NCBI GenBank assembly: GCA_002189035.1 | Contig: CM007991.1 | Coordinates: 4,092,001-4,156,000 of the forward strand | DNA: 64,000 nt | Direction: 5' to 3' | Origin: Utricularia gibba | Taxonomy: Eukaryota > Streptophyta > Magnoliopsida > Lamiales > Lentibulariaceae | Shown: positions 18,141-53,200 of the stretch, one piece after another | Layout of the letters: every line of letters starts with the position of its first letter | Numbering within the stretch: position 1 is the stretch's first letter | Program-made: the position numbers and the translations under genes | The notes under the pieces: generated by a model | What the model saw: the letters and a program-made list of their open reading frames with translations, nothing else | The model's database searches: none | What the model was told of the DNA's origin: nothing

Positions 18141-18305
18141 GTTCCACTTCATTTCCACATCATCATTTTTTATTTAATTTTTATATCAAAATTCAATCAG
18201 GATTTTATATTTATATTTTACACGAAAATTCAAATAAATAATATATTATATTTATTTCTTTTTATAAAATATTATAACTAATTCGTCCAGCATAATAATA
18301 CATAC

Positions 18306-18640
18306 GTGACACTGACATGTTCAGATTTAAATATTAAAATTCTGAAAAAAGTTTGATGTAACATTATATTAATTTATCTTTTTTCCAATTCAAAATTAAA
18401 AAATGAATCAATAGTACACATATGATACTGATATGTACAGAAATAACATTAAAATTCTGGAAAAAGTTTGGTATAATATTAAATTAATTTATTTTTTTTC
18501 AATTCAAAATTAAAAAACGAAACAATATTACACATGTGATACAGACATGTTCAGATTTTAACATTAAAATTCTGAAAAAATTTGGTGTAATATTAAATTC
18601 ATTTGTCTTTTTTCCAATTCAAAATTTAAAAACAAAGTAT
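18306..18640 (+). repeat. Three tandem ~115-bp units in the MULE subterminal region
   Basis: Units begin near 18306, 18421 and 18536. Each contains GATAC(T/A)GA(C/T)ATGT-like, CATTAAAATTCTG(A/G)AAAAA, a T-run followed by CCAATTCAAAATT, and a short ATAGTACACAT-like end. The third unit grades into the transposase region. Such arrays are common near MULE ends, where they may bind transposase. Confidence 0.8.
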
Positions 18641-30732: not shown

Positions 30733-31002
30733 CTGAACAACACACAACCAGTACAACCAAAACCATCATTTTTGCTAGAAAATTTTGGGCATAACATACA
30801 GTCATCGGTAAAGTTCAAGATACTTAGAAGATTATAATATTAATGTTGTGTTGGTATTTGTGATCATATGAAAACTAATTGATTTTTAGATCAATATAAC
30901 CATAAGATAAAGTCTAATCAAAGTAAAAAATCCACTTTCTTTTTTAAGTGCAATAGAGATGAAAAAAGACATCTACATATATACATGAATGATTACAAGT
31001 AT

Positions 31003-31576
31003 GGAAAAATTTCATTAAAGTCATTAAATTTATAGCCAATTTTCAATTTTGGCATCAAAGTTTTTTTATTTCAATAAAGCCATTAAACATATAAAAAACT
31101 TTTCATTTCAAATATGAATATAAAAATTGATTTTTTGTAATTGAATAAAACAATGATAAACCTAATTTAATGAAAATATAATCTGATTTAATATAAAATT
31201 TCACTAAATACATTTAATATACATACAATTTCATTTTCATCATAAAAAATTTATTCACTAAAAAACTTAATCATAATTAAATCATTATACGAAAATTATT
31301 AACAATGTAAAAACTATTTTATTTGTAATCAAAGACAAAAAAAATCAATTTTTGTATTAATTTTTGATGAATTTAATGAAATGTTTTATTAGATTGGATT
31401 ATACTTTAATTAAATCCATGCAAATATCAGTTTACATAAATAAAAAATGAATTTTATATGTTTATTTTTAAAATTAAACGATTTTAATTTATTTAATGGT
31501 TTTAATGGAACAAAAAAACTTTGGTGTCAAAATTGAAAACGAAAGATAAATTTAATGACTTTAATGAAATTTGTAC
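31003..31576. mobile_element. Non-autonomous Mutator-type MITE, 574 bp, with 10-bp target duplication
   Basis: Identical TTACAAGTAT copies flank it (30993-31002 and 31577-31586). The ends form long inverted repeats of about 90 bases: GGAAAAATTTCATTAAAGTC on the left against GTACAAATTTCATTAAAGTC (complement of the right). Both are followed by ATTAAATTTAT, CAATTTTG, CAAAGTTTTTTT and CATTAAA blocks. The centre is AT-rich with no coding frame. Long inverted ends plus a 9-10-bp duplication indicate Mutator-type mobilisation. Confidence 0.88.
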
Positions 31577-32042
31577 TTACAAGTATCAAAGAAATGATCC
31601 CTTAGAAATTTTTGACTGAAAGCGTCTAGTTTTACACGTTTCTATCTTTTTACTAATTGTAATTATATTATATATTTATAAAACTTTCATTTTATGGTAA
31701 AAAAAAATTTGTGTTGTTGAGATAATATAATATTATTTTTATTAATACGTTTCTTTTTAAATGCATCCTATATGTTATCTGAATTTAGTGTCATCATCGG
31801 TAACCCACCTACCCCCTGCCACTCCAAGCATGAAGCATCAATGCTCGTTTTCTGGGCACCCTAATCAACGGCATCACCATCTTGAAAGCAATGCGCTTCA
31901 ACTTGGGGGCCCTTTTTTTCAGAAAGATTGAAATCTGCAAACCTCTTTTGCTATGTGGATGAGCAAATCCAATCCCCATTCACATGTAATAAGGGCTTGA
32001 GAGGGAGGGGCAGACAGGATACGACAGTTTCTTGAGGAGAAA

Positions 32043-34523
32043 ATGGAAGCGAAGAGGATCCGTATCTTCTTCTTCCTCCTGCTGCTGTTCCCACTTTCGT
32101 CTGCATTTCCTCAGTGCAAGGATCTGAGTAAGTGTGTGTGTTGTCACCTGCTTGTTTCTCCTCTGTCTGACTTTCTTTGAGTTGAAAACTGTAGGTGCTC
32201 CCAAAAGGTTGAGGGGACATTTAGGCTTCTGTGCATACAGCGGAAGTACTTGCTGTAGCTTATCTGATGATCTGCAGCTGAAGAAGCAGTTCATGGGAAT
32301 GAGCATTTCTGATTCGGCCTGCGCCTCTGCTGTGAAGTCTGTTCTCTGTGCTGTAAGTTCTTCGAGTTGCAGCTGCTTGGTCGGTAGAAATGAAATCTGT
32401 TAACCTAATCTTTCGTCCCCGCAGCGTTGTGACCCATTTGCTGCGAAGCTGTTCAGCGCTGATTCAGAGCTCAGGTCTGTTCCCTTTCTCTGTAATTCCA
32501 CTGCTGGGAATGCCGACTTCGGCTTCTGCTCCACGGTGTGGGACAGTTGCGAAGATGTCCTGATCCAGAACTCTCCTTTTGCACCGGCATTGGAAACCAA
32601 AGCTGGAAACTCTCTGAATTCCTCGCAATCCAAGCTCAAAGATCTCTGGCAATCGAAATCGGACTTCTGCAACGCTTTCGGCCGAAACCCTGAAGACCAA
32701 AGCTCAATTTGCTTCAACGGCGAACACGTTTCCCTCAATGCAACAAACACGCTGCCTCCACCGAAGGGTTTGTGCCTGGAGAAGATTGGGAACATGTCAT
32801 ATGTCAGCATGGTTCCTCACCCAGATGGATCGAACAGGGCTTTCTTTGCAACCCTTGCTGGAAAAGTTTTTCTAGCAACTATTCCCGAGCAGGATTCAGG
32901 GGGCGAACTTGAACTCAACTTGTTTGTTGATTTGACTGACCAAGTTTATCTCGATACAACGTTTGGAATGACAGGAATAGCTTTCCACCCTAATTTCGCA
33001 ACGAACGGCAGATTCTTTGCGGCATTCAACTGCGACAGAAACAGGTCCCCGGCATGCAGAGGGATGTGCGCTTGCAATTCCGATGTGGGATGTGATCCTT
33101 CAAATCTGGTTTCTGCCGGAGGAGAAGAGCCCTGCAGATATCATACAGCTATAGCGGAATACTCAGCTAATGGAACTGCTTCAAACCCATCAACGGTAAA
33201 CACTTCTGGATCAGAATGGTAACAAAAGCATTTGCACCTTATATTCATGTTTCAGAGATTTAGATTACTTACAGTCGGTAAGAGCGAGCTCAACGGAAGT
33301 GAGAAGGATCTTCACTGTGGGGCTACCTTTCACAGCTAACCATGGTGGCCAGATTCTTTTTGGTCCTGCGGATGGATACCTCTATTTCATGATGGGAGAT
33401 GGTGGAGGCAAAGGTGATCCATACAACTTCGCTCAGAATAAGGACTCTCCGATGGGTAAGATCATGAGACTCGACGTTGACAATATACCTAGTAAGTGCC
33501 ATGATCATCAAACCTTGTTCAGTTGCATAATGCTGCTCCAGCTAGTTTGAAACATTCCTTGTCCTTAAAGGTGAAGATGAAATATTGAGGCTTGGGTACT
33601 GGGGAAACTACTCTGTACCTAAAGATAACCCTTATTCAAATGAAAGGGGAATGAGACCAGAGATCTGGGCTTACGGTTTCAGCAACCCCTGGCGTTGCAG
33701 CTTCGATTCAGAAAAGCCTTCATACTTTCTCTGTGGCGATGTTGGTCAGGTAAACCTTCACAAAGCTGATGCCAATCTTACATCCTCCATATCCTTCTGA
33801 GCTCCAAGTATTTCAGGATCACTACGAGGAAGTTGATCTCATTACAAAAGGAGGAAACTATGGATGGCGTGCCTTCGAAGGTCCTCTTGTTTATCGAAGC
33901 ACGTCTGGTACTCAGAGGAACGCTTCTGTTACTGCGGTGGATCCAATCTTCCCTGTCTTGGGGTACAGCCACAAATACAACAAAGTTGGCTCTGCTGCAA
34001 TAATCGGCGGATACGTCTACCGTTCACAAACCGATCCGTGCACCTATGGAAGGTAAAAGAAGAAGGCAATTCCATGTTCCATAACAATTTTGCATAATGC
34101 TTATCTGAAATGGGGTATAATAATGAAATCTGCAGTTACGTGTATGGAGACCTGTACTCAAATCATATCTGGGCTGCATCAGAATCCCCAGGAGACAGTG
34201 GAAACTTCACCGGAACAGACATCCCTTTCACCTGTGCTCCGGATTCTCCGATCACATGCAACATGGTGGTCAACAGCAGCCTCCCTGCTTTACAGTTAGT
34301 CTTCTCGTTTGGAGAGGACAACAGAAGAGATGTCTACCTTCTAGCACAGAGCGGAGTGTATAGAGTGGTGCGTCCAAGCCGATGCAACTATACCTGCTCG
34401 AAAGAAGTCATGATGTCTAACGCTAACGCTCCACCTGCTGCACCCGCTGAGTCTAAAGCACATTCACCTGCAATGCTCCACATTTCAGTGGTGTTGTTGC
34501 TGCTCCTAGCGTTTGTTAGTTGA
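32043..34523 (+). CDS. HIPL1-like: HIPL1/HIPL2-like protein (hedgehog-interacting-like, glucose/sorbosone dehydrogenase fold)
   Basis: Seven exons: 32043-32127, 32195-32352, 32425-33195, 33275-33491, 33571-33749, 33817-34052 and 34136-34523; 677 aa. Residues 1-22 are a signal peptide (FFFLLLLFPLSSAF). A cysteine-rich HHIP-N/folate-receptor-like domain follows (about 25-190, with GFCAYSGSTCCS). A PQQ-dependent sugar-dehydrogenase-type six-bladed propeller comes next (about 205-600), with GMTGIAFHPNF, NHGGQILFGPADGYLY, MMGDGGGKGDPYNFAQ and PEIWAYGFSNPWRCSFD. There are many N-glycosylation sites. The C-terminus is a Ser/Ala/Pro stretch and a hydrophobic tail (ISVVLLLLLAFVS) with no basic end, the form of a GPI-anchor signal. 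It is expected at the outer plasma membrane or wall. Biochemical activity of plant HIPL proteins is not established. Confidence 0.93.
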
Positions 34524-34992
34524 CGTGGTTTTCATGGTGAAACTAGGGAGATTCTGAACCTTCGCTTTTTCCCCGGTAGTCCCAGAGATTGTTATTCCAA
34601 TTGGAAGATTTAGCATGGCTTCTAGTTGCACCACCACGCTGCTGTTGAAATTACAAACTTGCCACAAGGTCCATGGAGAGATAAGGATGAGGAGTAATAA
34701 GGAAGTATGGGAGATATAAGGAAGAGTTGACCTAAGGTTAGAGTATACTCTAGAAGGAAGGTATTTGTTGTCATATTTTGGCATTCAAGGGAAAATATGG
34801 GAGCACCTTTGGCATCAAATCCGTGCAACGTATTTTTTTGTTAGTTTGGTTCCTTTGGCCAGCTCTATATATTGCTGGAAATTCATGTAAAACAGTGTGC
34901 GTAAAATACAAAGAATTTCTCATTGCACCTTTTCTTTCAGCTGCCATTCATTGCAGCAGCACAGATCCAACTGAGAACCCGAACGCGAAAGA

Positions 34993-35160
34993 ATGGCGCC
35001 AATTCAACTGGCCAAGCGTACTCCGAATATCTCCATAAATCCGGCATGCAGATCTAATCCGGGGGATTGCGAACAGATACTTTCGGCCAGTTCAGCCGTC
35101 CTCCAGAAAATTTCATCCGAAAAGGAGGCACGTTTACGTAGAAATAATTCAGAAAACTAG
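34993..35160 (+). CDS. Possible small or truncated ORF (55 codons) beside the repeat cluster
   Basis: An ATG at 34993 opens a 55-codon frame ending with TAG at 35158-35160. Its start reads MAPIQLAKRTPNISINPACR. The stretch 34980-35140 is clearly GC-richer than the DNA on its right and ends about 30 bases before the left arm of the large inverted repeat. It may be the first exon of a gene cut by the repeat cluster, part of an untranslated region, or chance. I do not recognise the protein. Confidence 0.25.
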   Translation: MAPIQLAKRTPNISINPACRSNPGDCEQILSASSAVLQKISSEKEARLRRNNSEN

Positions 35161-35189
35161 AAAATCATATTAAAACCTGAACTCAAAAG

Positions 35190-35500
35190 GAGCCTAATTT
35201 AGCTAACTAGCCCTCTAACAAAAATCAATTGGCTAAATACCTCTATTTCAAATTTTTTTGCGCAATACGCCTATTTCATTTATTTTTTTGCCAAATAGCC
35301 CTAATTTTCATATATATCAAATTTAATAAAATAAAAAACGAATTTTTATTAAAAATATTAAAAAAAACTTATCTATATATATATAATATTTAGTTATTAT
35401 AATATATACAATATTTAGATTTTATACTATTAGTTTTATGAAAAATTACAATTAATAAATATTAATAAAATTTTCAATATTTTAATTAATTATTTTTAAT
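35190..35500 (+). repeat. Left arm of a ~300-bp inverted repeat (mate at 50885-51205)
   Basis: From CCTAATTTAGCTAACTA onward this stretch matches the reverse complement of 51205-50885 over about 300 bases. The core AAATAGCCCTAATTTTCATA and the following ATATCAAATTTAATAAAATA are identical in both arms. Long AT-rich inverted ends of this kind are typical of Mutator-type elements, but no clear target duplication flanks the pair. Confidence 0.8.
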
Positions 35501-36032
35501 TTTTGCATTTTTTTGACTTAGTTTAATTTTATAAAAATATATAATTTGCAACAAATCAAAATTGAACATTTTACCTATGGATTCAACAAAGATAAAAGAA
35601 TATCAATTAAACTACATACTTAAGAAAGCTTTGTTAATATCGTTTATGCATAAGTCATGCATGTGTATGCTACACGGTACCCATGTGTCTTAAACATATA
35701 TACATCAATGTGGATTATGTAACTTATGTTCATAACTTAATTGATAAATTTTTTGTAATTAAAGGTTAATGATTCAATTTGTGTTTATCTCAAATAATAT
35801 TTTTTTAAAACCTAGAATAAAAAATGCATGTTTTTGTAAAAATTGACATTCAGATGCTGATTATTATTCATATAAATTGCAATTGGATAAATATTTAGCA
35901 TTTTCAGCTATTTAGTTAATTACTTTCAATATAATAATATTAATATTATAAAAATGTATAATTATAAATGAAGATAATTTCACCAATAAATCTTGAGATA
36001 AAAATGTTGTCAATTATGTTATAACTAATTGC

Positions 36033-36405
36033 TGTTGAGTATGAATCTAAGGAGAAGCATCAGAATCCAATGAGAGATCCAGAATAGAGGCAAAAAGGTG
36101 TCATGGCAAGGAGGAGTAAGAAAAGAATAGAAGAAGATTTGGACTTAATTACGTTAGACCCAAGTTGAGAACCCACCCCATGCTCAATGCGTAATCCACC
36201 GAGACAATCTGAGGGTGGAAAATAAAGTAAGTCTACCTACCTCAATCTTAGGCAACAGTTAACAATCCAACGGTCATCTAAAGTAACCTCTATATATACC
36301 TATATAACTCATCAGAGATGTTGCTCTCTTACGTTCATATTAGAACAAAAACAGCATATTCACTTTTTCAAATATCTATACCACAACATTTCAAAATTGC
36401 ATTCA
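36033..36405 (+). repeat. 5' LTR of copia element A (373 bp)
   Basis: Begins TGTTGAGTATGAATCTAAGG and ends ...CATTCA. It is followed at once by TGGTGAACCCGACATG, a plausible tRNA primer-binding site. The first ~240 bases match the 3' copy at 44957, which has a ~32-bp stretch absent here after GACCCAAGTTG. Confidence 0.8.
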
Positions 36406-36818
36406 TGGTGAACCCGACATGAACGAAACAACCACACTGCAATCTTCTAAGCCTCAGATTGATCAGATAAGTTCGAACTCTCAATCCTCTCATCTCCTAA
36501 TTGTTTTTCTTCCTAGCAGATCTACCAGATGACATCCACTATATCTGTCACAAATAGCTCTACTCCTATCATCGATGGCAAGGGGTATGACATCTGGGCA
36601 CCAAAAATGGAAATCTACTTGAGACTTTATAGTCTCTGGAATATAATCCCCATGGACCCCCTCTTTGTAGAAATTGCTGAAGAAAAACATATGGTAGAAC
36701 AGGTGTTCACTATGAAAGAAATTTAAGTATCAACAGTACTAGCAACAGCAGTGGTTGGTGATGCTTACCATTGCATAACTAGGAAGTCACCTAGAGAAGC
36801 ATGGCTGACCCTATAGAA

Positions 36819-37205
36819 TAGGGGTGCAAACGAGTTGAGCCGGCTCGCGATCTTTTTTGAGTCGGCTCAAGCTCAACTCGACTACAGCTCGGCTCGATCG
36901 AGTTCGAGCCGAGCCAAAATCGAGCTCGAGCCAACAATCGAGCCGAGCTCGAGCTTTGCATTCCAAGGCTTGAGGCTCAAGGAGGCAAATTTTTGGGCTC
37001 GAGAAGGCACATTTTTGGGCTCGAAATGCATTTTTAGGCTCGATGCAAATTTTTGGGCTCAAATTGAGCCCGAGTTCGAGCCAAGTTTTCTTGGGCTCAG
37101 CGAGCTTGAGCTCGAGTTCAAGCCTAAAAATATACAATCGAGCTCGAGCTCGAGCTCGAAATTTACCGGAAAGCTCGGCTCGGCTCGAGCTCGTTTGTAG
37201 TCCTA
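36819..37205 (+). mobile_element. hAT-type MITE, 387 bp, rich in GAGCTCG motifs
   Basis: Exact 8-bp duplications CTATAGAA flank it (36811-36818 and 37206-37213), as expected for hAT transposition. Terminal inverted repeats read TAGGGGTGCAAACGAG and TAGGACTACAAACGAG (complement of the right end). The interior is dominated by repeats of GAGCTCG/GGCTCGA and is far more GC-rich than its surroundings. The open frames across it are low-complexity by-products. It interrupts the gag region of copia element A. Confidence 0.9.
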
Positions 37206-40112
37206 CTATAGAACATATGAAGAAAGAAGGAAGACAAAAAAAAAGAGAAATTCAAATGCTATGGATTCATGTAGACAACTTCAGAATCCGAGAAGGAGAA
37301 GTTGCCTCTAACATAGAGGTGCTACTAAAAAACGTAGAAAAGCTGAAATGACTTGGTGAAATTGTGGATGACCGAGAAGAGCAAAAACTTAAAGCGAGAG
37401 TCATTCACAACTCATTTGCTGAATTTGATGTCGTTATTGAATCCCTGGATGCCATAGGCTTTCTCGAGACCCTGACTCTCCAACACCTATTAAATCACCT
37501 CAAGAATGTAGAAAGCAGACGGAAAACTCGAAAGTGATGAAAACCTTCATGACATAGTTTTCAAGACTGCATTTATCTCAAGCACTCACAAAGGAGAAAT
37601 AGAACAGCAGACTTACACAACACCAACATTCAAGCCTATCAAGGAAGAAAAGAAAGGATCATACCCTCCATGCCCTCATTGTGCTCAAAAGAATCACTTG
37701 CCTTCAAGTTGTTTCTGGCATTCTGATGCCTACTACACTATCTGCACTGCCAAGTGTCATATAGAGAAGGTGTGCCCAACCAAGAAAATTCAGAGCAACA
37801 CTCAAGCGACATCTAGGATGATTGAGTCAGTCACAGGAAAATTAAACAATGTATCTCTTGATAATATGAATAAGTACTTGAAGATTCTGATTTATTCTTT
37901 ATGCTACAAATCAATACTTACCGAATTCAAAGATCATAGACATAATGCTACATGGCTCATTCACTGTGCTTGCAGTAATCAACTCACAAATGACACATCC
38001 ATATTTGCCTCGTATAAGCCCATTTTTGGAAAATTGCTTATAGTGGCAGATGGGACTTCTATTGTAATAGAGGGCATCATTATGGTTTGCTTAAAAACAA
38101 ATAGTGTCTTGTCAAAATTGCAGAGGTTTATCATGTTCCCCAAGCCACTCATAATCTATTGGGTGTAGGGCAATTTATTGAAAACAGCTACAAATTACAT
38201 CTAGAAGTCTCCACTTGTACTATAACTTACTTCAACAACAACATCGTGCTGAAGGTTCTAATGATAAACATGCTATTCTCTATCAACTTTATTGATGAAA
38301 ATAAATATTACAGCCTTGCATGTGCCAATGCATCACTACTATGGCACAAGCACATGGGTCATCATCATTTGGCTCAAATAAAGGCATCTGAATCAAAGGG
38401 ATCAATTCAAGGCATACCTTAAGATCTCACAAATTCTCATCAACCTTGCAGATCTTGTCTCCTTGGTAAAATGAGCAGAAGCCCCTTCAAGAAAACAACA
38501 TAAGAATCAGATTTAAAGCTGAAATTAGTGGTTATCGATGTGTTTGGCCCTATGAACATATCTACTCTGGGAGAAAATCGATACTATTTACTCTTTATCA
38601 ATGATTATTCAAGATATACATGGGTATATTTTCTCAAGCACAAATCCAAAGTTACACACTACTTCAACACGTTCAAAGCACTAGCAAAAAATCAAAGCGG
38701 GTCAAAAATATTGACTTTGCATTTAGACAATGGAGGGGAGTATAAATCAACCAATCTACGAAACATATGCAATAAAAATGGAATTCTACATCGGTTTATA
38801 GTGCCATATACACCCTAACATAATGGCATATGCAAGGGGAAAAATTGCACTATTATGAATATGTCAAGATGCCTTCTTCTAGAACACAATCTACCCTCAC
38901 ATTTTTGGGGAGAAGCAGTTAATACCTCAATATTTTTACTCAATCGCCTTCCTATCAAGGGAGTTCATGAAGGTAAGACTCCCTATGAGTTGTGGTATGG
39001 AAGAACTCCAAATCTGAAAAACCTAAAAGTTTTTGGATCATTATGTTACGTCTTTGTTCCAAAGGAAAAAAAAAGAATAAATTGGAGAATCACTCTTAAA
39101 CAGGTGTATTCATGGGATACTTTGAAAATGAAAAAGATATACAGAATATATATTACTCAATCCAAAAAACTTGAGATTCGGAGATGTACAGATGTAGTAG
39201 TGGATGAATCTAAGACCTTCACATGGGATAGCATGCTTAAAGAATCATATTATGGACATGCACACGGAATTGAATCTCTCTTTCCACAAGATAAAGTAAA
39301 AAATCGTGTGGGAACTGACAATAATTATGAACTTGAGGAGGAAAGTGAACTGGCTCTAGAAAGGAATAATGCAGCATCTTTCAGGAATGAAACAGAACCT
39401 GGTGATAATGATGGTACCCCAAATGTAACTGTCAATGATAGAAGTCATGAAAGTGCACCAACTATTATCTCTATAGAAAAGAACCATGACTATACAAATA
39501 TCCTATCTCAAAATTAGAGATGTTCAAAAGACCCACCCAAACCCAAAACCAATCGGAATCCCAATTTTTTGGGTCGGTTTTGATCGATTCTGGGTCTGGG
39601 CCGGTTTTAGGTCCGTTAAATGAAGAATCAGTTGGTTCTGGATTGGATCTAGGTCTATGGGAAAATACCTAGACTCGATGCAGAACCGATAGTATTTTTT
39701 TTATTTAAATGAAAAATTAATTTTTAAAATAACTTATAAAACCCACCACTAATAATGTTGGGCCGTGGGCTGTCAGCATGTTTTCATCATATTATTTATT
39801 AACACTTATTAGTATTATTATTATTACTTAAATAATTAAATGACAATGTGGCCCATATTTGTTGAAAGAAGTGCGGGCTTTGTAGCAACGGAGATAGCCG
39901 TGTTGATTTGGGTTTGTGGATTTGAGTAGTCTTTTGATTTTTCATGTTGCTAACTTGCTGTCATGCATGTTATGGTTTAGGCATTGAGATAGGTCATTGA
40001 GATTTGACTAATTCTATTTCTATCTGCTCTATTTAGGGTTTATTATTAATTGTGTACTGGATTTGTATTGTTTAGCTTAATTTTGTGCATTCTGATTATA
40101 AGATTTCAGGAG

Positions 40113-43100
40113 ATGGCATCAAATGATGATTCTATTGTATCTTCCACACCACCACAAATTATGGAAGATGAGTAGAATATAAGAAAGTTGGGAACGGATA
40201 TTGATGAAAAAGACAATACTTGTGGATTAGGAGTAGGCTTAGTAAGGAATGAAGAAGAGACTGAAAACAATAATACAAGGAAAGAAAGTTCAGATGTTTG
40301 GAATGATTTTAGGAGATTCTTTGATGACAAGAAAAAAAAATGGCTGACAAAATGCAATTATTGCAAGAGAACCATTTCTACAGAAATAGCCAATAGCACC
40401 TCAAGTCTCTGGAAGCATTACAATAATATTGAGGAAAAAGGCAAAGTGGACATTAGGAAATCTATTCTTCAGATTGAAAGAAAAGGTGCAGTTAAAAAGT
40501 TTGACTTTGATCCCAAAATGGCACGAGAGGAACTCACAAAAGCTGTTGTTTTACATAATTATCCATTGGTCATGGTTGAATATATCGGATTTATAAGATT
40601 TTGTGCAAGTATGAATCCTGCATTCTCTATGATTTCTCGGCATTCTCTCAGAAGGGATATTACTCAAATGTATTTGAGTTACAGATCTAAGTGCTATTCA
40701 TTGTTACAAAAAAAAAAAAATCAAGTGAAAATTACAACAGATATGTGGACAGCCGATCATAATATGAAAGGATACATGGTAGTTACAGCACATTTTATTG
40801 ATGAAGATTGGAAGTTACAAGTTGTATCTTGAGGTTCCTTTAATATCATTTAAATAAGTGAATGTATTTAGTAGTATTTTCATTATGATTTGCTTATGAT
40901 TTTTCTCTCAATTTACTTGTCGTTTTTTTAGATTTGTTTATGTTCCATCACCACATACTGCTGGAGTAATTTAAGATGTGTTGCTTCAATCGCTTATTGA
41001 GTGGAATATTGATCGGAAGTTGTACAATTACTGTAGACAATTTTTCAACAAATGTTCTTGTGATGGAATTGATTCTCCTAAAGCTTTCATCAAAAGATTT
41101 ACTTCTTGGTGGTCAGGTACTTCACATGCATCGTAATGCGCACTTATTCTAAGATTGAGAGAGCAATTGAAAAAATTCATCGGAGTATTGTGTTTTGGAC
41201 AGCTTCGCAAAAGAGAGTTGAAACATTTGATCATGCTACGAACCAATGTGGTATTGGTGGTGACAAGAAGCTAGCACTTGATTGCAAGACTCGTTGAAAT
41301 TCGACACATTTGATGCTATGAACTGCTATTTTTTATAAAGATGTGTTTCCACGAGTAGCACTTATAGAGAGATAGTACAAAAATCTTCATTTTAAAGATG
41401 ATTGGGTCAAAGCACTTATAAAGATTTTTTATAAGACTACTCTCTTGTTTTCATAAACTCTTCACACCACTACCAACTTATTTTTTACTACAATTTGTGA
41501 AATCAAGATTCAACTAAATGAATGGGTTAAGAGTGCAGATGAGACCATTTCTGGAATGGCAGAAGTGTTGGGTTTCTCGTAGACATCAAATGTTTCAAAA
41601 GCAGCGGAATTTTAAAATTTTTTTAGAAACCCCAACGCAGATCTTGGAATACGGTATACATTATACAAAGGGATGCTGAAAATACCTTTCAGATGACTCC
41701 GTTGTTCACCAACCGCCAATAGCAGACGGCCTCTATGGTATCCACACGTGGAGCACTCCGTCGATAACCTTCTCAAGGCTCTTGAATGCTGGTCGAATTT
41801 CTCAGGTGCTAGTAGAGAAAAACGCCTCCTTGTGGACCAATCTCAAAGAGTACGAAGACTCTTTGGAGCAGATCTCTATATCTAAATCTTTTTATATATA
41901 TTTTGTGACATATCAAATCATATCTCCATAAAGATCGTATCTTGTGGAGATATGCATATGTTCCAAATCTTATCTATGTGAGATCTTTTATTTTGAGTTT
42001 AATCAACATTAATCTCAAAATAGCTCTCTATTTAATTTATCCATTTTACCAATTACATCTCATGTAATTGTGTCATCCTATTTTATATCGATGAGTGACT
42101 CCACTATTGTGTATAACCCTATAGGCTTCTTTAATCAAGCCCATAATAATGGATTTATTAATTAACTTTTAATTAATCAAATCCATCATTACCGATCATG
42201 AGTGATGTCTAGTAACATATCATGATCCCCAGGATTAAAGAATAATCAGGTGAACTGATTGAGCCTTTCCATGACCAGCCACCATGCAATGAATATCTTT
42301 CATCATTCTTATATCTCATTCGATACCAGAACATGGGTGTGTGTGTCTTCTAAAGCATCGAACTTATAATTGCATTCAAGCACTAACACTCAATGACCTA
42401 CTCAAACAATTCGAGTGTCATTACCCTTGGCCCAGGACTTACTGTTAGGCTTTGATGCAATTACTTAAGATATGATCTCATCGCTAACATGAGTGATGAA
42501 TTCTTTATTGATCAATCAACTATCTCCAACCTTAAGGAGTCACATCCCTACTCATCCATACTAGGCAAGACATGGTTAGGCTCCCATTAATAATGAGCGA
42601 AAATGTAAGCTTAAGATCAAGATAACTTTGTTGACCTCAAGTCTAAGCTTACTTGCACGGCTGTCACATTCGAGATCTTGTTACTGACACTTGGTTAGCT
42701 TCCCATAGTAGCATCTCGAAGATGAGTCATCCAGTGAATCGATTCTCTAATCGACACCCACACATAGGTTCTAGTAATCTCATCACATCAATTGTGAGAA
42801 CCATTGCCTAAACAGTTTAGGGAACTCAATGTGAGCCAGCTTATCCGTATTTGTGATATCCTCATTTCACAAATACTCTAGCCAGGGAGTTTTAACTTGA
42901 TCATGAGTGCTTGAAGAATCTCACATTATGATCTCATCATAATTTCTATAGCATATAGATCAAGTAGAGGATTTTATCAATGATATAAATTTGATCACAA
43001 TTCAAAGTAAATATCAAAAGATAAGATTTGCCAATGAGTTGATTGTCTCTAAAACACATACACTAACAAGAAGACATGATGGCCAAGTTCTCCAAATATT

Positions 43101-43726
43101 GGGACACTTGACATTTAATCCTTGGAGTTGCTGCGATTTTGGATTCAAGGTATAAGATGAAACTCATTGAATTCTATTTCCCTTTTATTTATGGCAAAGA
43201 TGCTAGTGTTCATATTGAAAAAGTGTTGAAGAGTGTGAGAGATCTTTTAAAAGAATACAAGTCTCTAGATACTTCTATTTCGAGTTTATCATCTTTGAGG
43301 GCAATTGATCATGTTTCTGCATCTAGTTCGGTTACTATGAGTAGATCTGGATCGTCCACTTTGTCGATGTATGATCAGTTCATGGCTAAAGAATTTAGAA
43401 TTGTTTCAAATCCCCTTGAATTAGAGTTAGACTACCATCTCAAAGAGCCAGTCTTGCAAGGAATGGGGAATTTCAATGTGCTTAATTGGTGGTTGGTAAG
43501 TGGAAATGTGACTTATCCTACATTAAGGAAAATGGCAAGTGATATTCTAGCTATTCCTATTTCTACGGTAGCATCAGAATCTGCTTTTAGTATTGGTGGA
43601 AAAATTGTTACCGTCCTTCATAGTAGGTTGAAGGAAGATATTCTAGAAGCACTAATATACACTAGATATTGGCTACGGAATGAGATCAAGGGTAAGCCTG
43701 AAGCATTATTTATTATCACTATTTGA
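40113..43726 (+). pseudogene. hAT transposase pseudogene (zinc finger BED ... hATC), split by a solo LTR
   Basis: Starts with ATG at 40113 but meets an in-frame TAG 20 codons later. The BED zinc finger follows (about 40285-40430, WLTKCNYCKRTIS ... WKHYNN). The first catalytic region is at about 40735 (TTDMWTADHNMKGYMVVTAHF). A probable intron precedes block 40930-41300 (PHTAGVI, then ITVDNFSTN in another frame, LALDCKTRW near 41270). The ISGMAE motif at 41555 is separated by the solo LTR from MMAKFSKYW at 43077. The C-terminal hATC dimerisation domain is at 43139-43726 (DSRYKMKLIEFYFPF, then ILAIPISTVASESAFSIGG). Stops and frameshifts throughout make it non-functional. Confidence 0.88.
41566..43068. 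mobile_element. Solo LTR, 1503 bp, inserted in the hAT transposase
   Basis: Begins TGTTGG and ends CTAACA, the inverted TG...CA ends of an LTR. Exact 5-bp duplications AGAAG flank it (41561-41565 and 43069-43073). No coding region and no second LTR are present. Joining its flanks restores colinearity of the hAT protein alignment, which confirms the borders. Confidence 0.9.
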
Positions 43727-44956
43727 TAATATTTTCTAATTGCCTAATCTGATCTTATTTTATTTTTTTGTGATCTAGATATGGAACAAATCTCATTGCT
43801 TGAAGACAAACTGATTGAGGATGAGAACTTGGAGAACATTCATGATAGCTTATATACCACTGAAGCATGAAGTTCGGTTTTTTGAACTCAGATCATGTTT
43901 TAATTTGTATAAACATTTTTCTTAGTGTTTGTCAACTTTCTTTGCCTTTTAATGCTCTTCTATTGTTTGAAAGCTTTCAAATTCAATGTTTTTAGGAAAA
44001 GCCGGAATCGGTAAGGACCTAGAATCGACCCAGAATCGACCCAGAATCAATAAAGAACTGTGGTTTTGGGTCTATCAGTTCTTAATCGAGTCTGGGTTGT
44101 TTTCGGGTCTTTGTCTTTATAGTTGAGTTGGTTATGGGTTGGCATAGAAGAGACCCATGAACATCTTTACTCAAAATCGAAGCACCAAAAATAATGTAGA
44201 TGCCCAAAATACTAACTCTGATGACTCTGGCCACTCCTTACGAAAACAGGAGGAAAATCAAGCAGGCTCTTCTAAATAGATGGAACCTAATATGCAGACT
44301 ACACATGTCATTCTTGATGAGTATATGCCACATTTTCTATGCACTCAACCGAATCAAAATTATGATGAAGTACCTGTTCGAGGCTATGATTCCATCAGTT
44401 GAATTTATGGCAAAGCTCTGCTATAGACAAACTTGCTAATATTAAACCTCTTGGGTTGAAGTGGATCTTCCAAACGGAATTCAACTCCAATGGATCTATG
44501 AATAAACTTAAATCCAGATTAGTAACAAAAGTATACCTGCAAAGAGAAGGAATTGACTATTAGGAAACCTTTGCTCCTGTCGCTCGGTTTTATACTATAA
44601 AATTAGTCATCGCCTATGTTGCTTGATACTGAAGTTGTGTGATGACCTAAAGATCAAGATCCAAAAGCTGCTCATCCTAAAAATTGATAACAGATTTGCA
44701 ATCAGTATCGCACAAAACCCCATCATGTTCGGAAAAACAAAGCATATCCGGATCAAGTATCGAGTCTTGCGGGACTACGTGAAAGAAGGAAGCATTAGAT
44801 TGGAGTTTCTACCGTCTGAACAATAGGCCATAGGTATTCTCACTAAAGCCCTCTTCTCATGATACTTTGCGCAAATTTGAGAGATGCTAGGACTGAGAAT
44901 AAATCCAACATATTCTTCTACTTCCCCTCAGTTGCATCATCAAGAAGGAATGATGA

Positions 44957-45204
44957 CTGTTGAGGATGAATCTAAGGAGAAGCATCAGAATCCAGCGAGA
45001 GATCAAGAATAGAGGCAAAAAGATGTCGTAGCAAGGAGAAGGAAGAGAAGAATAGAAGAAGATATGAGCCTTATTGTGTTAGACCCAAGTTGTGCCAAAT
45101 GGGCCTTTAAGAAGGAAGATTTTGAGAACCCAACCTGCTCCATGGGGATCCACCCAGACAATCTGAAGCTAGAAAATAAAGGAAGTCTACCTACCTCATT
45201 GCTT
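44957..45204 (+). repeat. Truncated 3' LTR of copia element A
   Basis: Begins TGTTGAGGATGAATCTAAGG and matches the 5' LTR until about 45204 (AAGTCTACCTACCTCA), after which homology stops. The next bases belong to the RNase H region of a copia element in the opposite orientation, so the outer ~130 bases of the LTR are missing. Confidence 0.8.
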
Positions 45205-45689
45205 CCCAAATCCATTGATACCAAATGTCAATATGTTTGGTTTTGGAATGTTATGCTGCATGCTTGCTCAAGTTTATGGTACTTTGGTTGTCACAAAGAA
45301 TTTTCAGCTTGTAACTTGGTGCTGAGAAGTTCTGTTCTTGCAAGAATCGATCCAGCCAAATAGCCTCATTCCCTACTTGGGTAAGTGGCATATACTCTAC
45401 TTCCATAGACGAGAGTGCCACACAATGCTAAAGAGATGACAACCATGCTACTCCACCACCACTCAGTATGGTGATCAAACCTGTGGTAGATCTTGTGGAA
45501 TCAATATCCCCAACTAAATTAGAATCAACATACACACTAGGCTCACTGCAGAATGTTTCACCATAGCTCAATGCGAGATCAGCCATGCCTTTTAGATATC
45601 ATAACAGCCACTTTGCTACTTCCTAGTGCACTGCTTTCAGCCATGACAGAAAGCAACTGATGTAGCTAATTGCATACGCGATATCAAGC

Positions 45690-47085
45690 TAGACAGCACA
45701 CAAATTTTCATGTTTTTACAATATGAAAATCATGAGTTTTTAATTATATTTAGTTGTTTATTTTATAGTTTTAAATGTTTTTATATATAATTTTTTGTGT
45801 TTTAGTGGGTTAAATCCCTTGATTTAGCCCACCCATGTTCTAACCCAATTTTGAGCCCAACAGCTACCCGAAAATCATGGAAAAGTCAAGGATTTCATGT
45901 AAGTTACCACGCAATATGAAGTAATGAATACACTGTCCCGACAACAGTCTGCAAGTCAAGGGCAGGAGTAGCAGAATTGTCAGAGAATGTACTTGACTTG
46001 AGCAATAGGAGGCGAGAGAAAGGGAGAGGAGAGAGAATTGCAAGGGACAACATGTTTTTTTCAGAATACACACGGGGGGATTTTTCCCTCCAACATTCAG
46101 CAACCCCCAACGGCGGGGAGAACGACTTCTCCACCGACCAACAACTCGAACACGAAGAACATCGACCAGAAGAGGAGAAGAAGATCTTCATCCTCAAGCA
46201 CTACATCAAAAACAGTTCAACACTACTGTTGTGGTCCAGGAAGAGTAGCAGACGGAAACCAGAACTCTTACTACTTTATTTTAGTTTGTTTATATTTTCA
46301 GTTTCTGCAACCAACTCTTTCACAATGTTCTTGCCATTACATTTTAACTTCAAAGCATGAGTAGCTAAACCCTAGGGGTGTCTTAAGGTGAAGCATGATG
46401 GTGTGGGTCTAGGAGTCTTAATAAAATTCACCATTGTTTCTTAGCTCTTATTTCTATCAAACCATGGGTAGACCTAAGGAAGGGAACAAGTAGCTTCACA
46501 AATTAGATGCTTGATTTAGAGGTAGTCCAACAAATCAAGATGGGCGCAGTAGATGTTAGTCTGGGGTAGAACGAGTAGAACCGGGTAGACCTAGTTCTAT
46601 ATGCTTTGCATGCGAGTAGGCCTAATTGCAATGTTGGTGATGATATGGGGGACTAACTTAGCCGAAAATATGATGAGTGACCTAGGTAGATTTAGGTTAT
46701 TTGAAATTGTGAGTGTAGTAACATGGTAGATTAAATTAGGGATCTTAGCACTATACCACCTGCAGACCCTTAAGGCACCTTAATATTATTCTGAGTTAGA
46801 ACCAGTACCTCTTACCTTAACGTTAAGACCAGATATTGTTTACGGAAGTTGTTTACCACTGTTGGTCCGAGCTTAGACTAAGACTTACCATTACTTTGAA
46901 TTCTGCATCTGTCGAAATACATGACAAGCACAAGCTCCCTGTGATCGACCCCGAATACCACTGTATACTTTGTGTTTAATTTGTATTTTGTGAGGATTAG
47001 GAACTATAAATTTATTTGATACGGAAATTTGGTTTTATTGCAACAGCATGCTAAAATTTTCGTTTCAGTACTCATCATTATGTAC
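45690..47085. mobile_element. ~1.4-kb insertion in copia B, probably a solo LTR
   Basis: Joining the flanks restores the copia reverse-transcriptase alignment: VGSVMYIMMST ends on one side (47085) and LDIAYAISYIS starts on the other (about 45690). The inserted DNA has no polymerase. Its right end reads CGTTTCA, an LTR-type CA end, and it contains CTCCCTGTGATCGACCCCGA, a phrase common in plant gypsy-type LTR elements. No exact target duplication was found, so borders are approximate. Short frames inside it (45864-46364) have no family support. Confidence 0.65.
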
Positions 47086-50000
47086 ATAACAGAGCCCACA
47101 TAGGACGAGAAAGGGACTGTTGACATAAATGCAGCCTCGTTTTCTGTCTCCGCACCACCCACCCACTCCACTAATGAGTTTAACAGCATGATTCATAGGA
47201 GTGGACAATGGCTTACAATCAACCATATCAAACTTTCGAACCACTTGCTGAATGTACCGCACTTGACTAAGGCTAAGTGTCCTGGCTTTGCAGTCTCTCA
47301 CAATGTCTATTTTGAGAACTCTCATAGCATCCCTAAAGCTGTTCTTTCAATTGATTTAGAAATGCCACTCATGGACTCAATAACAGCTATCGTCAACATA
47401 AAGCACCAACAGCACCATGTCCCCTACAACATACTGAAAACAAGCACAAGGTTAGCTTCAGATTTCCTATAGCCCAGTTGGATCATATATTTGCCAAACT
47501 TCTGATTCCACTGACGAGGGGTCTTCTTGAGGACATATAAGCTCTGTTTGAGCTTACAAACCACATGTTCCTGACCTTGCTTAATAAATCCTAGTATTTG
47601 CTTTATAAAGATTTCTTCATGTAATTCTCCATGTAGAAGCATGATTGCAACTCAAGATCGAATTAGGCTACAAAAGACAGAATAATGCAAATCACATATA
47701 TCTTGGCCACCGGGGAGAAAATCTCTTGATAATCAACACCTTCTTTTTTATTAAACCCTTTTATCATGATTCTAGCATTGTAGCGCATGGTGCCATCAGG
47801 ATTGCGTTTTAGCTTTAAGATCTACTTATTATATAGTGGCTTTCTACGCTCAAGCAAAACCACAAGCTCATATCTTTGGTTTTTCCATAAAGACTACATT
47901 TCCTTCTTCATCATCCATCCACTTATCTTCATCAATAGTATGCATAGCCTCATTCGATTCAAGTTCTTCCTCTTCAATGATCAAAATAAATTCAGAAGAT
48001 GTATATCTAGAGCTAGGTATCACTCCTCTATATGATCTATGTAAAGGTTGAGTTGTTGGAATTGAGGGACTATCCTTAGTGGCTGGGTTCTCTGTGGAAC
48101 TTGAAGGTTGTTGCCATGCTATCTCTAGTGATGCACTTACTATTTGTCGTTGCAATGCCACACTCATAGATTGAACAAAGTCTAAGTTTATGCTAACTTC
48201 CTCACCAGTATGTGGAGACTCGTTCAATGACCATTTCTAATTTTCTAGGAAACGAACATCTTGTGATTGGACGATCTTACCAATAGCAGGATCCCATAGA
48301 CAGTAAACCAGATCTATCTCTCCATAACCTAGAAACATGTAGGATTTGGCATGATCATCCAATTTATGCCACTTCTCCACATGCACATGTACCAAAGTCT
48401 TACATCCGAACATCTAAAGATGCAAATTCTTTAGATGTTCTTCATAACTTCACTTGTCTCCCTATCCATAATTCTTCTGGGAGCTACAAATCTATGGCCT
48501 TCTTAATACTTTGATTAGACAAATAACAAGTGGTCAAGATCGCCTCACCCTAGAATTTCCCTGATAAAGCAGCATCTTTCAACATACATCTGACCTTATC
48601 AAATAAGGTGCGGTTCAATCTTTCTACTATGAGGTTGTGTTGGGGTGTTTCAGGTTCTGTCGCCATCTTGCTAATGCCAGGGTTTAGACAGTATTGTTTA
48701 AACTTCAAACTACAGAACTCATCATCATTTTCAGTCCATAGAAACTTCAGTTTAACACTAGTTTGTTGCTCAACTATTGCATGAAATGTCTTAAAACACT
48801 CAAACACCTCAAACTTGTGGGTGATCAGATAAACCCATGATTTGCATGTAGCATCATCCGTGAATGTCAGAAAGTGCTTCACTTACCCAACTGTGGGAAT
48901 ATTTACTGGGCCACTTACATTAGAGAACACCAAATCAAGCTTATCTTTGCTTTTGTGGAAATTTAATTTGAACCACTATGTACTGCTTGCCTATGATGTA
49001 GCTTTCACACACAGTTGTAACATTACAAGTGTTAATAGCACCCTTTCTAACCAATTTCTGAATGCCCAATTCTGAGAGGTGCCTCAAGCGTTTATGCCGC
49101 ACCTCATATAGCAGCATGGATTTGGCTACCATCAAGACTTCTTGAAGCTTAGGTTTTCACTCTTTGCGATAGAGTCCACCTACTAGAGTCTCACCAATCA
49201 AGAGCAAATTGACCTGCAGAGATGGCACATGTCGCACCTCTATCAATTTCAATTTAGTAGCTAAGTTTGTAATCACCACGAGATCACCAACCCTTGCAAT
49301 TTCAAAGACCGAGTCATTACCCATTTTCAAAGTACTTGAGTCACACTTCTTATAATTCACCATTCCACGCTTAGAGGGTGATGCATGGAATGATACACCA
49401 GAGTCTACAAACTAAGTATCCACCAGCCCTGCATCCCCTGCTTCAGTTGCAAGAAGAATCAATAAATCATCATCAATTTCGTTGCGATAAACTGTAGTAT
49501 TGGCTTCTGGATTTTTTGAGGTGTGTGCTAGCTGTTTTTCCCATTGTGCTTGTTTGTACCCATAGCAATCCTTTCGAAGGTGAACTTTCTTCCTGTAGTA
49601 GAAACACGTCCAGTTTTCCTTTTTGTGGTATGTACTCTCACTACTCTATGATTGATCACGATGACCAGATTTGTCACACCCTCGTCTTCCATGATGATCC
49701 CGTGACCTCCCTCTCTGATTTCCATCAACATAAGGCAATGTTCTTGGTATCAAGACCCTTTCCAACACCTGCATTTCAGTGCCGCAACTCTTCTTGCAAT
49801 AGAGCATTTGCTAAAATCTCATACCTAAGACTCCCATTGGCAGAGTTATTAAGGGTAATAACTAACGTCTTCCATGAATCAAGTAATGAGTCCATAAATT
49901 GGATAGCATGAATTTCTTCATCAAAACACATTTTGATAGAAACCATTTGATCAATGATGTCTATAAACCGGCTCAAATGCTCAGCCATCGATTTCCCATC

Positions 50001-50335
50001 CTTGTACTTCAGCTGCAACATGCTTTTATATAGAGGAAATTTATTTAGGGCATTTTCAAGACAAAACATGTACTCCAGTGCCTTCCACAATTCCTGAGCA
50101 TCATCAAATTCATTGATGCGATTCGAGAGACTATTATCGATACACAAGTTCATAATTACCACTACTTTTAGATGAAATCGACACCACTCCAAGGTTTCCA
50201 CATTTGAGGAAGAGAGTGCCCCTGCCACAATAGGCTCCCACTGGTCTTTCCATACCAGGACAGACTTGATCTTCGAGCGCCACAATGAGTAATTCGTGGT
50301 TGTAAGCTTAGGTACTCCATGGACCTCTTCCATAT

Positions 50336-50347
50336 GCTCTGATACCA
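50336..50347 (-). promoter_or_regulatory. Primer-binding site of copia element B
   Basis: On the minus strand it reads TGGTATCAGAGC, the classic plant copia site matching the 3' end of initiator tRNA-Met, two bases inside the LTR. Confidence 0.9.
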
Positions 50348-50349
50348 CT

Positions 50350-50811
50350 TGTAGTCATGTATTGATTATGAGTGTGAAAATAGAACAAGACAAGTTTAGC
50401 TAGGTAAATCCCCAATTGGGAAAACCTCTTGGTGTTGAGTTAAATACTCAATTTGCAGATTCACTAGGCTTTGAACAAGAAACACAATACACATAATGCT
50501 CCCAACCCAAATCACACATGCTATGATCACTCTCGAACCAGACAGAATCTAGCTCACACCCCCACTCTCTCACTGCACACTCCATTATAGGCAAACAGTC
50601 ACACTACGCATGAGCCTTCCTATGCATAGTGGGAAAAAACTGCTAGGCTAACTACCCAACCTTGTGGCACACCTTTCACTTGCCTACTGAACCTATTGAC
50701 CATTAAGCTCGCATTGGGTAACATGGTGTTGGACATTGGGGCTAAATTTGGGACAATAGAAGATGCAAATATTTTGATGGAAAAGTAATGACGCTTGCTC
50801 ACCAAACTACA
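50350..50811 (-). repeat. 5' LTR of copia element B (462 bp)
   Basis: Has matching terminal words TGTAGT and ACTACA in both orientations. It lies two bases outside a primer-binding site complementary to initiator tRNA-Met. No second copy was found in the window. Confidence 0.82.
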
Positions 50812-50884
50812 TTATGCATACTTTCTTCCGATTCATCAAATTGCAAGTGAGCATATATTGGAAACACAGTACGATATGGTCTTG

Positions 50885-51205
50885 CTGATCATATTTATTA
50901 AAATATTAAAATTATTATTATTTTTATTAATTATAATTTTTCATAAAACTAATCGTATAAAATCAAAATACTGTATACATTATAATAGTTTGTATTATAG
51001 AAACTAAATTGTGTATATATATATATATATATATAAGTTTTTTTTAATATTTTTTAATAAAAATTCGTTTGTTTATTTTATTAAATTTGATATATATGAA
51101 AATTAGGGCTATTTGACAGAACTATTGTGCAAAGTTTTTTAAAATAGGATTATTTAGTCAATTGCTTTTTCGCAGAGAGGTAGTTAACTAAATTACCCCC
51201 AAAGG
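50885..51205 (-). repeat. Right arm of the ~300-bp inverted repeat (mate at 35190-35500)
   Basis: The reverse complement begins GGGGGTAATTTAGTTAACTA and follows the left arm through AAATAGCCCTAATTTTCATA to ATTAGTTTTATGAAAAATTA. A TA-repeat inside (51011-51034) differs in length from the left arm. The flank outside this arm is GC-richer, like that outside the left arm. Confidence 0.8.
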
Positions 51206-53200
51206 ATTCTTTTCTAGGAGAGACCTCGATACTTCTCGATTTTGGTATTGCTCGTCTTCTCCTCCACCGGTGTCCGTCGGTCACCAGATGGCTTGGGAAA
51301 GAAGCCGTGAACAACTTATTATTGGGCTGATCTCCAGTTTCCGAATATGGGCCGGGCCGACTTCTAATTTTGCAAGGTGCTTTCGGCGCCTAAAAGCCCA
51401 CTATTTTTTTCCAAAAATAATTGATATTATGCGATATTAATATTTTAATAGTAAAAATATTATAATACCAAAAAAATAATTGCTTTGTATTAACAGATAA
51501 ATGTAAAAATATCTTGATAAATTGAAATTGGCGTAAAAATGATAAAACATTCATATAAAAAATATCTAATAAAACAACTAGTAATATAAAAATTAAAAGT
51601 ATTGAAATGGTGTGAAAAAATATTGTAAGAAAAAATAAAATCATTCTAATATGGTATTAGATATAGCAAAAATTGTCTACTATCACTTGGGATATCCAAA
51701 TCCAACTCCTCCTTCTGTTCAACTTTTGAAAAACTAAACATTTGAAATCCCATATAATTGATTCATATTTTCTAAGTCCGAAAGCGAATACGAAATATAA
51801 TTTCTTCAATAATCAAATATTGCTTAACACACCCTAAAGGTTTATATAGAATAATTTCACTCTTGAAAAAATATTATAAAAATATTTTTTTATTAAACAC
51901 GAACAAATTATATTTCATAACTAGTAGAAATGTATTAGCTATTCTTATTTTTACAAATTATCTAATTTTCTTTTTATTGGAAGTAATTTTTAAAAATTGT
52001 TTTTATCAGAATTTAATATATTAACAGCATGTATGTTTTTATATTATAATAAAATTTAACACTCTGCACACAAAAAAATGATGGAGATTAGGATACCCAT
52101 TAGAGATGAGTGACGCATTTGGATAGGGTGAGCATTCGGTGCGCCTTGTCTTTGTGGTAGGTGGGCCAGTGTGGTGTAGGTGGACCAGAGAGTGTGGCCC
52201 ACCGTTGGATGGATGCAATTCACATCAAGCGTCCAATCATTGGTTGGAATCAGAAACCTCGAGCTGTGGATGCCCTTTTCAAGGCCTCTTTCAGGAAAAC
52301 TCTCTTCTAACCTTGCCTTCAACTACATATTTTATTGCCTAGTAAAAAATATATATATTCGAGTTCTTTTTTTTTTTTCAAAATCACTTTTCCCAAACGA
52401 TTCTAAAACATAAATTAATAGATTATAGTATATTAAAAATAAAAAACATTTATAAAATTATTTTTTGGTATAGTTTGGATTTCCAAAAAAAATTATGCAC
52501 TTACAAAAATATTTTTAAGTCAAAAATCTATATCGTAACGATTTTCAAAAATTCTTTTTTTCAAAGCAGCTTTTATTTGTTCCATAAATTTTTCAAACGA
52601 ATATGAACTATAAATATTCAAAACAACAGTAATTAGTATGAAAAAATATTATAACTTTTTTAAAATAAAAATCGTTCGTATTTAATAACAAAATTATTTA
52701 TATATTGAAAACATAATTTTATCCATTTATTTATTATTATTGGAGTAGGTGAATACTCCATCACATCTCTATGTCCAAAAAAAAATAAAAAAATAAGACT
52801 CAAAAGTTGTAATGAAGCAATTCAAAAAAAACTCCAAATCTTAGGTAATATAATCTCCATGGAATAATTGCTGAATTATTGATAAGACAGAGCAAAACTT
52901 GTTAAAGGGGAAACAAGAATAGCCAAGGGATTTGATTAAATAAAATGGAAAGGGAGAGATGAGTGTTCTAAAGCAACTACTTATAGATATGAAAAATGAT
53001 CAATTATTAATAATATTTTTTTTAGAAAAAAGATTATATAAATCCAAAAGTTGTTCCAAAGAGGAAATGTTATTTTATCAATTATATTTATGGCTTATTC
53101 AAATTATAATATCAACTATGTGATAATAATTTTTCAAACATCATGTTTTTTTAAAAAAAAATAAATATAATAATAAGAAGGTGTATGCTTCAGTGATCAT
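51206..53200. other. Spacer right of the repeat cluster
   Basis: 51206-51400 is GC-richer (CTCCTCCACCGG, GGGCCGGGCC) and looks like old genic or promoter DNA, but no protein is recognisable. The rest is AT-rich apart from a mixed patch at about 52080-52330 with no supported coding frame. Confidence 0.45.

What the first reader, a model, noticed from the sequence alone, without database searches (positions are those of the whole stretch)
36033..45204. Three-level nest: solo LTR inside hAT inside copia, all with exact target duplications
Copia A carries a hAT transposon (CTCAAAAT twice), which carries a solo LTR (AGAAG twice). A separate hAT MITE (CTATAGAA twice) also sits in copia A. If the outer inverted repeats are one element, this is four levels. 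The order of events is readable without any external data.
Basis: seen in the sequence. Interest (0 to 1): 0.6.

Follow-up and report, generated by a model that had tools for sequence, protein, structure and literature searches.

The report
Ordinary stack of nested plant transposons
A dead jumping gene in a plant genome carries another dead jumping gene, which in turn carries the leftover end of a third; the nesting is real and its order can be read, but such stacks are common in plant genomes.

Summary
The core observation holds. A degraded Ty1/copia element (copia A, from 36033) holds a hAT transposon (39515-44169; CTCAAAAT on both sides). The hAT holds a 1503-bp solo LTR (41566-43068; AGAAG on both sides). 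Copia A also holds a 387-bp hAT-type MITE (36819-37205; CTATAGAA on both sides). Three other genomic copies of the hAT lack the LTR and have AGAAG once. Copia relatives lack both the MITE and the hAT. Divergences follow the nested order (copia A LTRs K=0.138; hAT to nearest copies 0.066-0.105; solo LTR to nearest copy 0.057). Corrections: "all with exact target duplications" does not securely cover copia A, whose right LTR is cut off at 45198 where copia B begins; the order of hAT and MITE is not readable. The outer inverted repeats are probably one element (35192-51198; TIRs 85% identical, flanking 8-mers 7/8), making four levels with less certainty. The solo LTR records two events. Nested TEs are textbook in plants.

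The parts
35192..35491 (+). left terminal inverted repeat of the probable outer element (outer-family sequence continues to about 36024); CAAAAGGA at 35184-35191
   Evidence: 85.5% identical over 282 sites to the right arm; family copies with the same end; 35926-36024 matches L014 at 83-84%
50893..51198 (-). right terminal inverted repeat of the probable outer element; CCAAAGGA at 51199-51206
36033..36405 (+). 5' LTR of copia A, followed by PBS TGGTGAACCCGACATGA
   Evidence: alignment to the 3' LTR; PBS conserved in L055 and L067
36406..44958 (+). internal region of copia A, defective, interrupted by MITE and hAT
   Evidence: rve and SH3_retrovirus above cut-off, Pol_BBD just below; relatives at 62-73%
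44959..45198 (+). 3' LTR of copia A, cut off (lacks the part matching 36245-36405)
36811..37213 (.). hAT-type MITE (36819-37205) with 8-bp target duplication CTATAGAA
   Evidence: natural empty site in copia relatives
39507..44177 (+). hAT transposon (39515-44169) with 8-bp target duplication CTCAAAAT
   Evidence: zf-BED, hAT-like_RNase-H and Dimer_Tnp_hAT
41561..43073 (-). solo LTR (41566-43068) with 5-bp target duplication AGAAG; strand inferred from the PPT-like sequence beside other copies
   Evidence: natural empty site in L025, L026, L027
45199..50713 (-). copia B, truncated in its RNase H at 45199; its 5' LTR is about 50348-50713; carries a 1.37-kb repeat at about 45692-47065
   Evidence: copia-type gag

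Best explanation
This is an ordinary nest of dead transposable elements in a plant genome. An old element with long terminal inverted repeats (probably Mutator-like, now 35192-51198) received copia A. By cut-and-paste insertion copia A received a hAT transposon and, independently, a small hAT-type MITE, each making an 8-bp target duplication. An LTR retrotransposon then integrated into the transposase gene of the hAT with a 5-bp duplication, and recombination between its two LTRs later removed its interior and left one LTR. Separately, a deletion probably joined copia A's cut-off 3' LTR to a truncated copia B. Shown: the three target duplications, the empty sites in relatives, the copy families, the divergences. 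Inferred: the LTR-LTR recombination, the unity of the outer element, the deletion at 45198/45199.
For: Exact duplications at all three inner insertions, far above chance. hAT copies L025, L026 and L027 run uninterrupted through the LTR site with AGAAG once. Copia relatives run across the MITE site, and have only about 0.54-0.74 kb across the hAT site. Copia A has no second copy and hAT copies lie in other surroundings. Six of 14 other LTR copies are flanked by exact 5-bp duplications, as solo LTRs are. K2P 0.138 (copia A LTRs), 0.066-0.105 (hAT to nearest copies), 0.057 (LTR to nearest copy) follow the nesting order.
Against: Copia A's right end is lost, so its own insertion is not proven by a target duplication. 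The outer element's 8-mers match 7/8 only, and its interior between the copias is partly unexplained (50714-50892). The copia relatives are 62-73% identical and ten of them (L056-L065) are near-identical copies of one family, so the independent comparisons number about five. Alignment right at the hAT junction is too diverged to show base by base. The genome held is about 100 Mb and may be partial.
Confidence: 0.93

Rival explanations
1. The nest, or part of it (copia A with hAT), amplified as one composite element, so the order seen is inherited from an ancestor copy and was not built at this place.
For: None found.
Against: The copia A interior has no second copy in the 100 Mb held; best other match about 70%. 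hAT copies lie in other surroundings and several have their own 8-bp duplications.
Confidence: 0.03
2. The outer inverted repeats are two separate insertions of one repeat family in opposite orientation, not the two ends of one element, so the nest has three levels.
For: The family is common (42 matches) and several copies show a single arm only. The flanking 8-mers differ at one base. 50714-50892 does not match the family interior.
Against: The two ends share the terminal motif and have near-identical 8-mers outside (about 8e-4 by chance); they are each other's best match in the genome; L014 and L019 are family members with both arms; family sequence reaches to within 8 bp of copia A.
Confidence: 0.3
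3. Copia A integrated with an already truncated 3' LTR, and ATTGC at both ends is its true target duplication.
For: ATTGC at 36028-36032 and 45198-45202; the cut-off LTR ends in CTCA.
Against: A 5-bp match within 3 bp of the end is expected in about 1.2% of cases. Copia B is also truncated at this point, which a simple insertion does not explain, and GCAAT fits as the next codons of copia B's RNase H.
Confidence: 0.12

Closest known systems
Nested transposable elements of plant intergenic DNA (maize, wheat; PMC2773423, PMC4290129)
   Same: Younger elements inserted in older ones, order readable from interruption and divergence, solo LTRs with target duplications; up to 8 layers and 30,199 nested insertions on wheat chromosome 3B.
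   Different: Here the layers mix DNA transposons and retrotransposons; this is a difference of detail, not of kind.
hAT superfamily with BED zinc finger (Ac/RICESLEEPER-like)
   Same: 8-bp target duplication, short TIRs, zf-BED, hAT RNase-H fold and C-terminal dimerisation domain.
   Different: Transposase reading frame is broken by stops and by the LTR.
Ty1/copia LTR retrotransposons
   Same: Integrase core followed by SH3-like domain in copia A; copia-type gag in copia B; LTRs TG...CA; 5-bp target duplication for the solo LTR.
   Different: Copia A is a defective single copy with a truncated 3' LTR; the solo LTR is 1.5 kb long and belongs to a different, high-copy family.

Membership tests
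hAT superfamily (39515-44169) | 8-bp target duplication | tested here: met
   CTCAAAAT in the window; exact 8-mers for L028, L029, L030, L031
hAT superfamily (39515-44169) | short terminal inverted repeats | tested here: met
   TAGAGATGTTCA / TAAAGATGTTCA, conserved in other copies
hAT superfamily (39515-44169) | hAT transposase domains | tested here: met
   PF02892, PF14372, PF05699 above their cut-offs
hAT-type MITE (36819-37205) | short, non-coding, TIRs, 8-bp target duplication | tested here: met
   TAGGGGTGCAAACGAG / TAGGACTACAAACGAG; exact 8-mers in the window, L071, L077, L078
Ty1/copia (copia A) | copia order: integrase before reverse transcriptase | tested here: inconclusive
   rve and SH3_retrovirus found; the reverse transcriptase seems mostly deleted, so order is judged from relatives only
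Ty1/copia (copia A) | two LTRs and flanking target duplication | tested here: inconclusive
   both LTRs present but the 3' one is truncated; ATTGC match may be chance
Solo LTR (41566-43068) | one LTR, TG...CA, no interior, intact target duplication, same family as two-LTR elements | tested here: met
   three copies are followed by a PPT-like sequence and shared interior-like sequence; two-LTR elements not cut out whole
Mutator-like / MULE-type MITE (outer arms) | long TIRs with a target duplication of about 8-11 bp | tested here: inconclusive
   TIRs of about 300 bp (616 bp in L014); flanking 8-mers 7/8, in L019 10-mers 9/10; no transposase found

The most novel reading that the evidence does not exclude
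Copia A entered with a 3' LTR truncated in U3 and integrated at that internal CA end with a 5-bp duplication (ATTGC), an example of integration of an incomplete retrotransposon cDNA.
Probability: 0.12. Interest if true: 0.3.

Novelty: new member of a known kind. Interest (0 to 1): 0.12.

Why it matters
It is a clean worked example of relative dating by nesting: target duplications, natural empty sites in relatives and divergence all give the same order, so the locus could serve as an annotation test case for this genome. It does not change understanding of transposons.

Tried and rejected
Composite amplification: no second copy of copia A and no shared insertion in hAT copies. A short copia A LTR ending at 36244, which would give an exact target duplication: rejected because the PBS at 36406 is conserved in L055 and L067 and because 36245-36405 holds the TATA-like stretch. 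Copia A inserted into copia B: rejected because the sequence left of copia A matches the outer-element family, not copia. A second paper search gave no hits. First blastn settings gave no output and were corrected.

Full report
What was checked. The region 34000-52500 was read directly, its repeats listed, and target duplications and inverted repeats measured. Pieces were then searched in the window's own genome, of which about 100 Mb in 516 contigs is held.

The hAT. It runs from 39515 to 44169. CTCAAAAT stands immediately outside both ends. The ends are TAGAGATGTTCA and TAAAGATGTTCA (inverted). Reading frames inside match zf-BED, hAT-like RNase-H and the hAT C-terminal dimerisation domain. 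Shorter members of the family elsewhere have the same ends and their own 8-bp duplications: AATAAGAT in L028, GTCGTAGA in L029, AGGAGAAC in L030, CTGGGCAA in L031, and GATACAGA/GATATAGA in L027. This fixes the ends independently of the window.

The solo LTR. It runs from 41566 to 43068, with AGAAG on both sides. Forty of 469 candidates were scored, nearly all at 89-95% identity. Of the 14 other copies cut out, six have an exact 5-bp duplication. Three (L040, L046, L047) are followed by a PPT-like CAAGTGGGAGAT and share further sequence, as full-length elements would; this puts the window LTR on the minus strand. In hAT copies L025, L026 and L027 the base matching 41565 and the one matching 43069 belong to one uninterrupted stretch in which AGAAG occurs once. 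(L027 has lost the hAT part left of the site, so L025 and L026 are the full empty sites.) These show that the LTR came after the hAT. A solo LTR needs two events: insertion of the full element, then LTR-LTR recombination (established mechanism; inferred here).

The MITE. It runs from 36819 to 37205, with CTATAGAA on both sides. Family members L071, L077 and L078 have exact 8-bp duplications of their own. In copia relatives L055-L067 the left and right flanks of the MITE lie next to each other.

The host copia A. Its 5' LTR is 36033-36405; the PBS TGGTGAACCCGACATGA follows and is conserved in relatives L055 and L067. The internal region matches rve and SH3_retrovirus above cut-off and Pol_BBD just below it. 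The reverse transcriptase seems mostly deleted near 44635 (read from the sequence; no RVT match was found). The 3' LTR begins at 44959 and stops at 45198, without the part matching 36245-36405. At 45199 copia B begins on the minus strand, itself cut within its RNase H. So copia A has no secure target duplication. ATTGC occurs at both ends, but a 5-bp match within 3 bp is expected in about 1.2% of cases. Copia A is single-copy in the genome held: its interior has no match above about 70% over any length. In relatives the distance across the hAT site is about 0.54-0.74 kb, so they have no 4.65-kb hAT. L056-L065 are near-identical copies of one family, so these are about five independent comparisons.

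The outer repeats. The arms 35192-35491 and 50893-51198 are 85.5% identical over 282 sites. They end in GCCTAATTTAG and GGGTAATTTAG and have CAAAAGGA and CCAAAGGA outside (chance of 7/8 or better about 8e-4). A family member with both arms (L014) is 1.56 kb long, and L019 has 10-mers matching 9/10 outside its arms. Outer-family sequence reaches 36024, 8 bp from the copia A LTR. One element interrupted by the copias is the better reading, which makes four levels; it is not proven.

Dating. K2P: outer arms 0.162 (arms need not have been identical at insertion); copia A LTRs 0.138 over 208 sites; hAT to its nearest copies 0.066-0.105; solo LTR to its nearest copy 0.057, with 1.5% private substitutions. 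The hAT and solo LTR values are upper bounds on insertion age. With the commonly used 1.3e-8 per site per year (from memory, for grasses; the rate here is unknown) copia A would be about 5 million years old and the solo LTR at most about 2. The order agrees with the nesting. The order of hAT and MITE, which are siblings in copia A, cannot be read.

Comparison with what is known. Nested insertions are the rule in many plant genomes: 30,199 on wheat chromosome 3B alone, up to 8 layers, with 3,998 solo LTRs (PMC4290129); maize likewise (PMC2773423). The locus is a tidy but ordinary example.

Method limit. Empty sites were shown by aligning the two flanks of each insertion to relatives. The interrupted copia element was not rebuilt.

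Noticed in passing
L027:1-3036 (G000:C2, about 3087609-3090650): Reciprocal nesting: a shortened member of the same hAT family sits inside an LTR of the same family that is nested in the window hAT, with flanking 8-mers TCTATATC / TCTGTATC. The two families were active over overlapping times.
   Followed up: partly
L056-L065: Ten copies of a copia family are 99.9-100% identical to each other over 3.7 kb, and 64-68% identical to copia A: very recent activity.
   Followed up: partly
45692-47065: A 1.37-kb high-copy repeat (774 candidates) interrupts copia B; its exact ends, target duplication and class were not resolved.
   Followed up: partly
L025 and L026, 3' of the hAT coding region: Both hAT copies share a 3' end different from that of the window copy, and L025 runs into a tandem-like array of about 60-bp units.
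   Followed up: no
18294-18606 and 30994-31585: About three tandem copies of a 114-bp unit, and a 592-bp inverted repeat with 143-bp arms 78% complementary.
   Followed up: no
G000 as a whole: Some contig lengths are round (8500000, 6192500, 2492500, 642500) and the total is close to 100 Mb, which suggests that the held genome is partial; copy counts are lower bounds.
   Followed up: no
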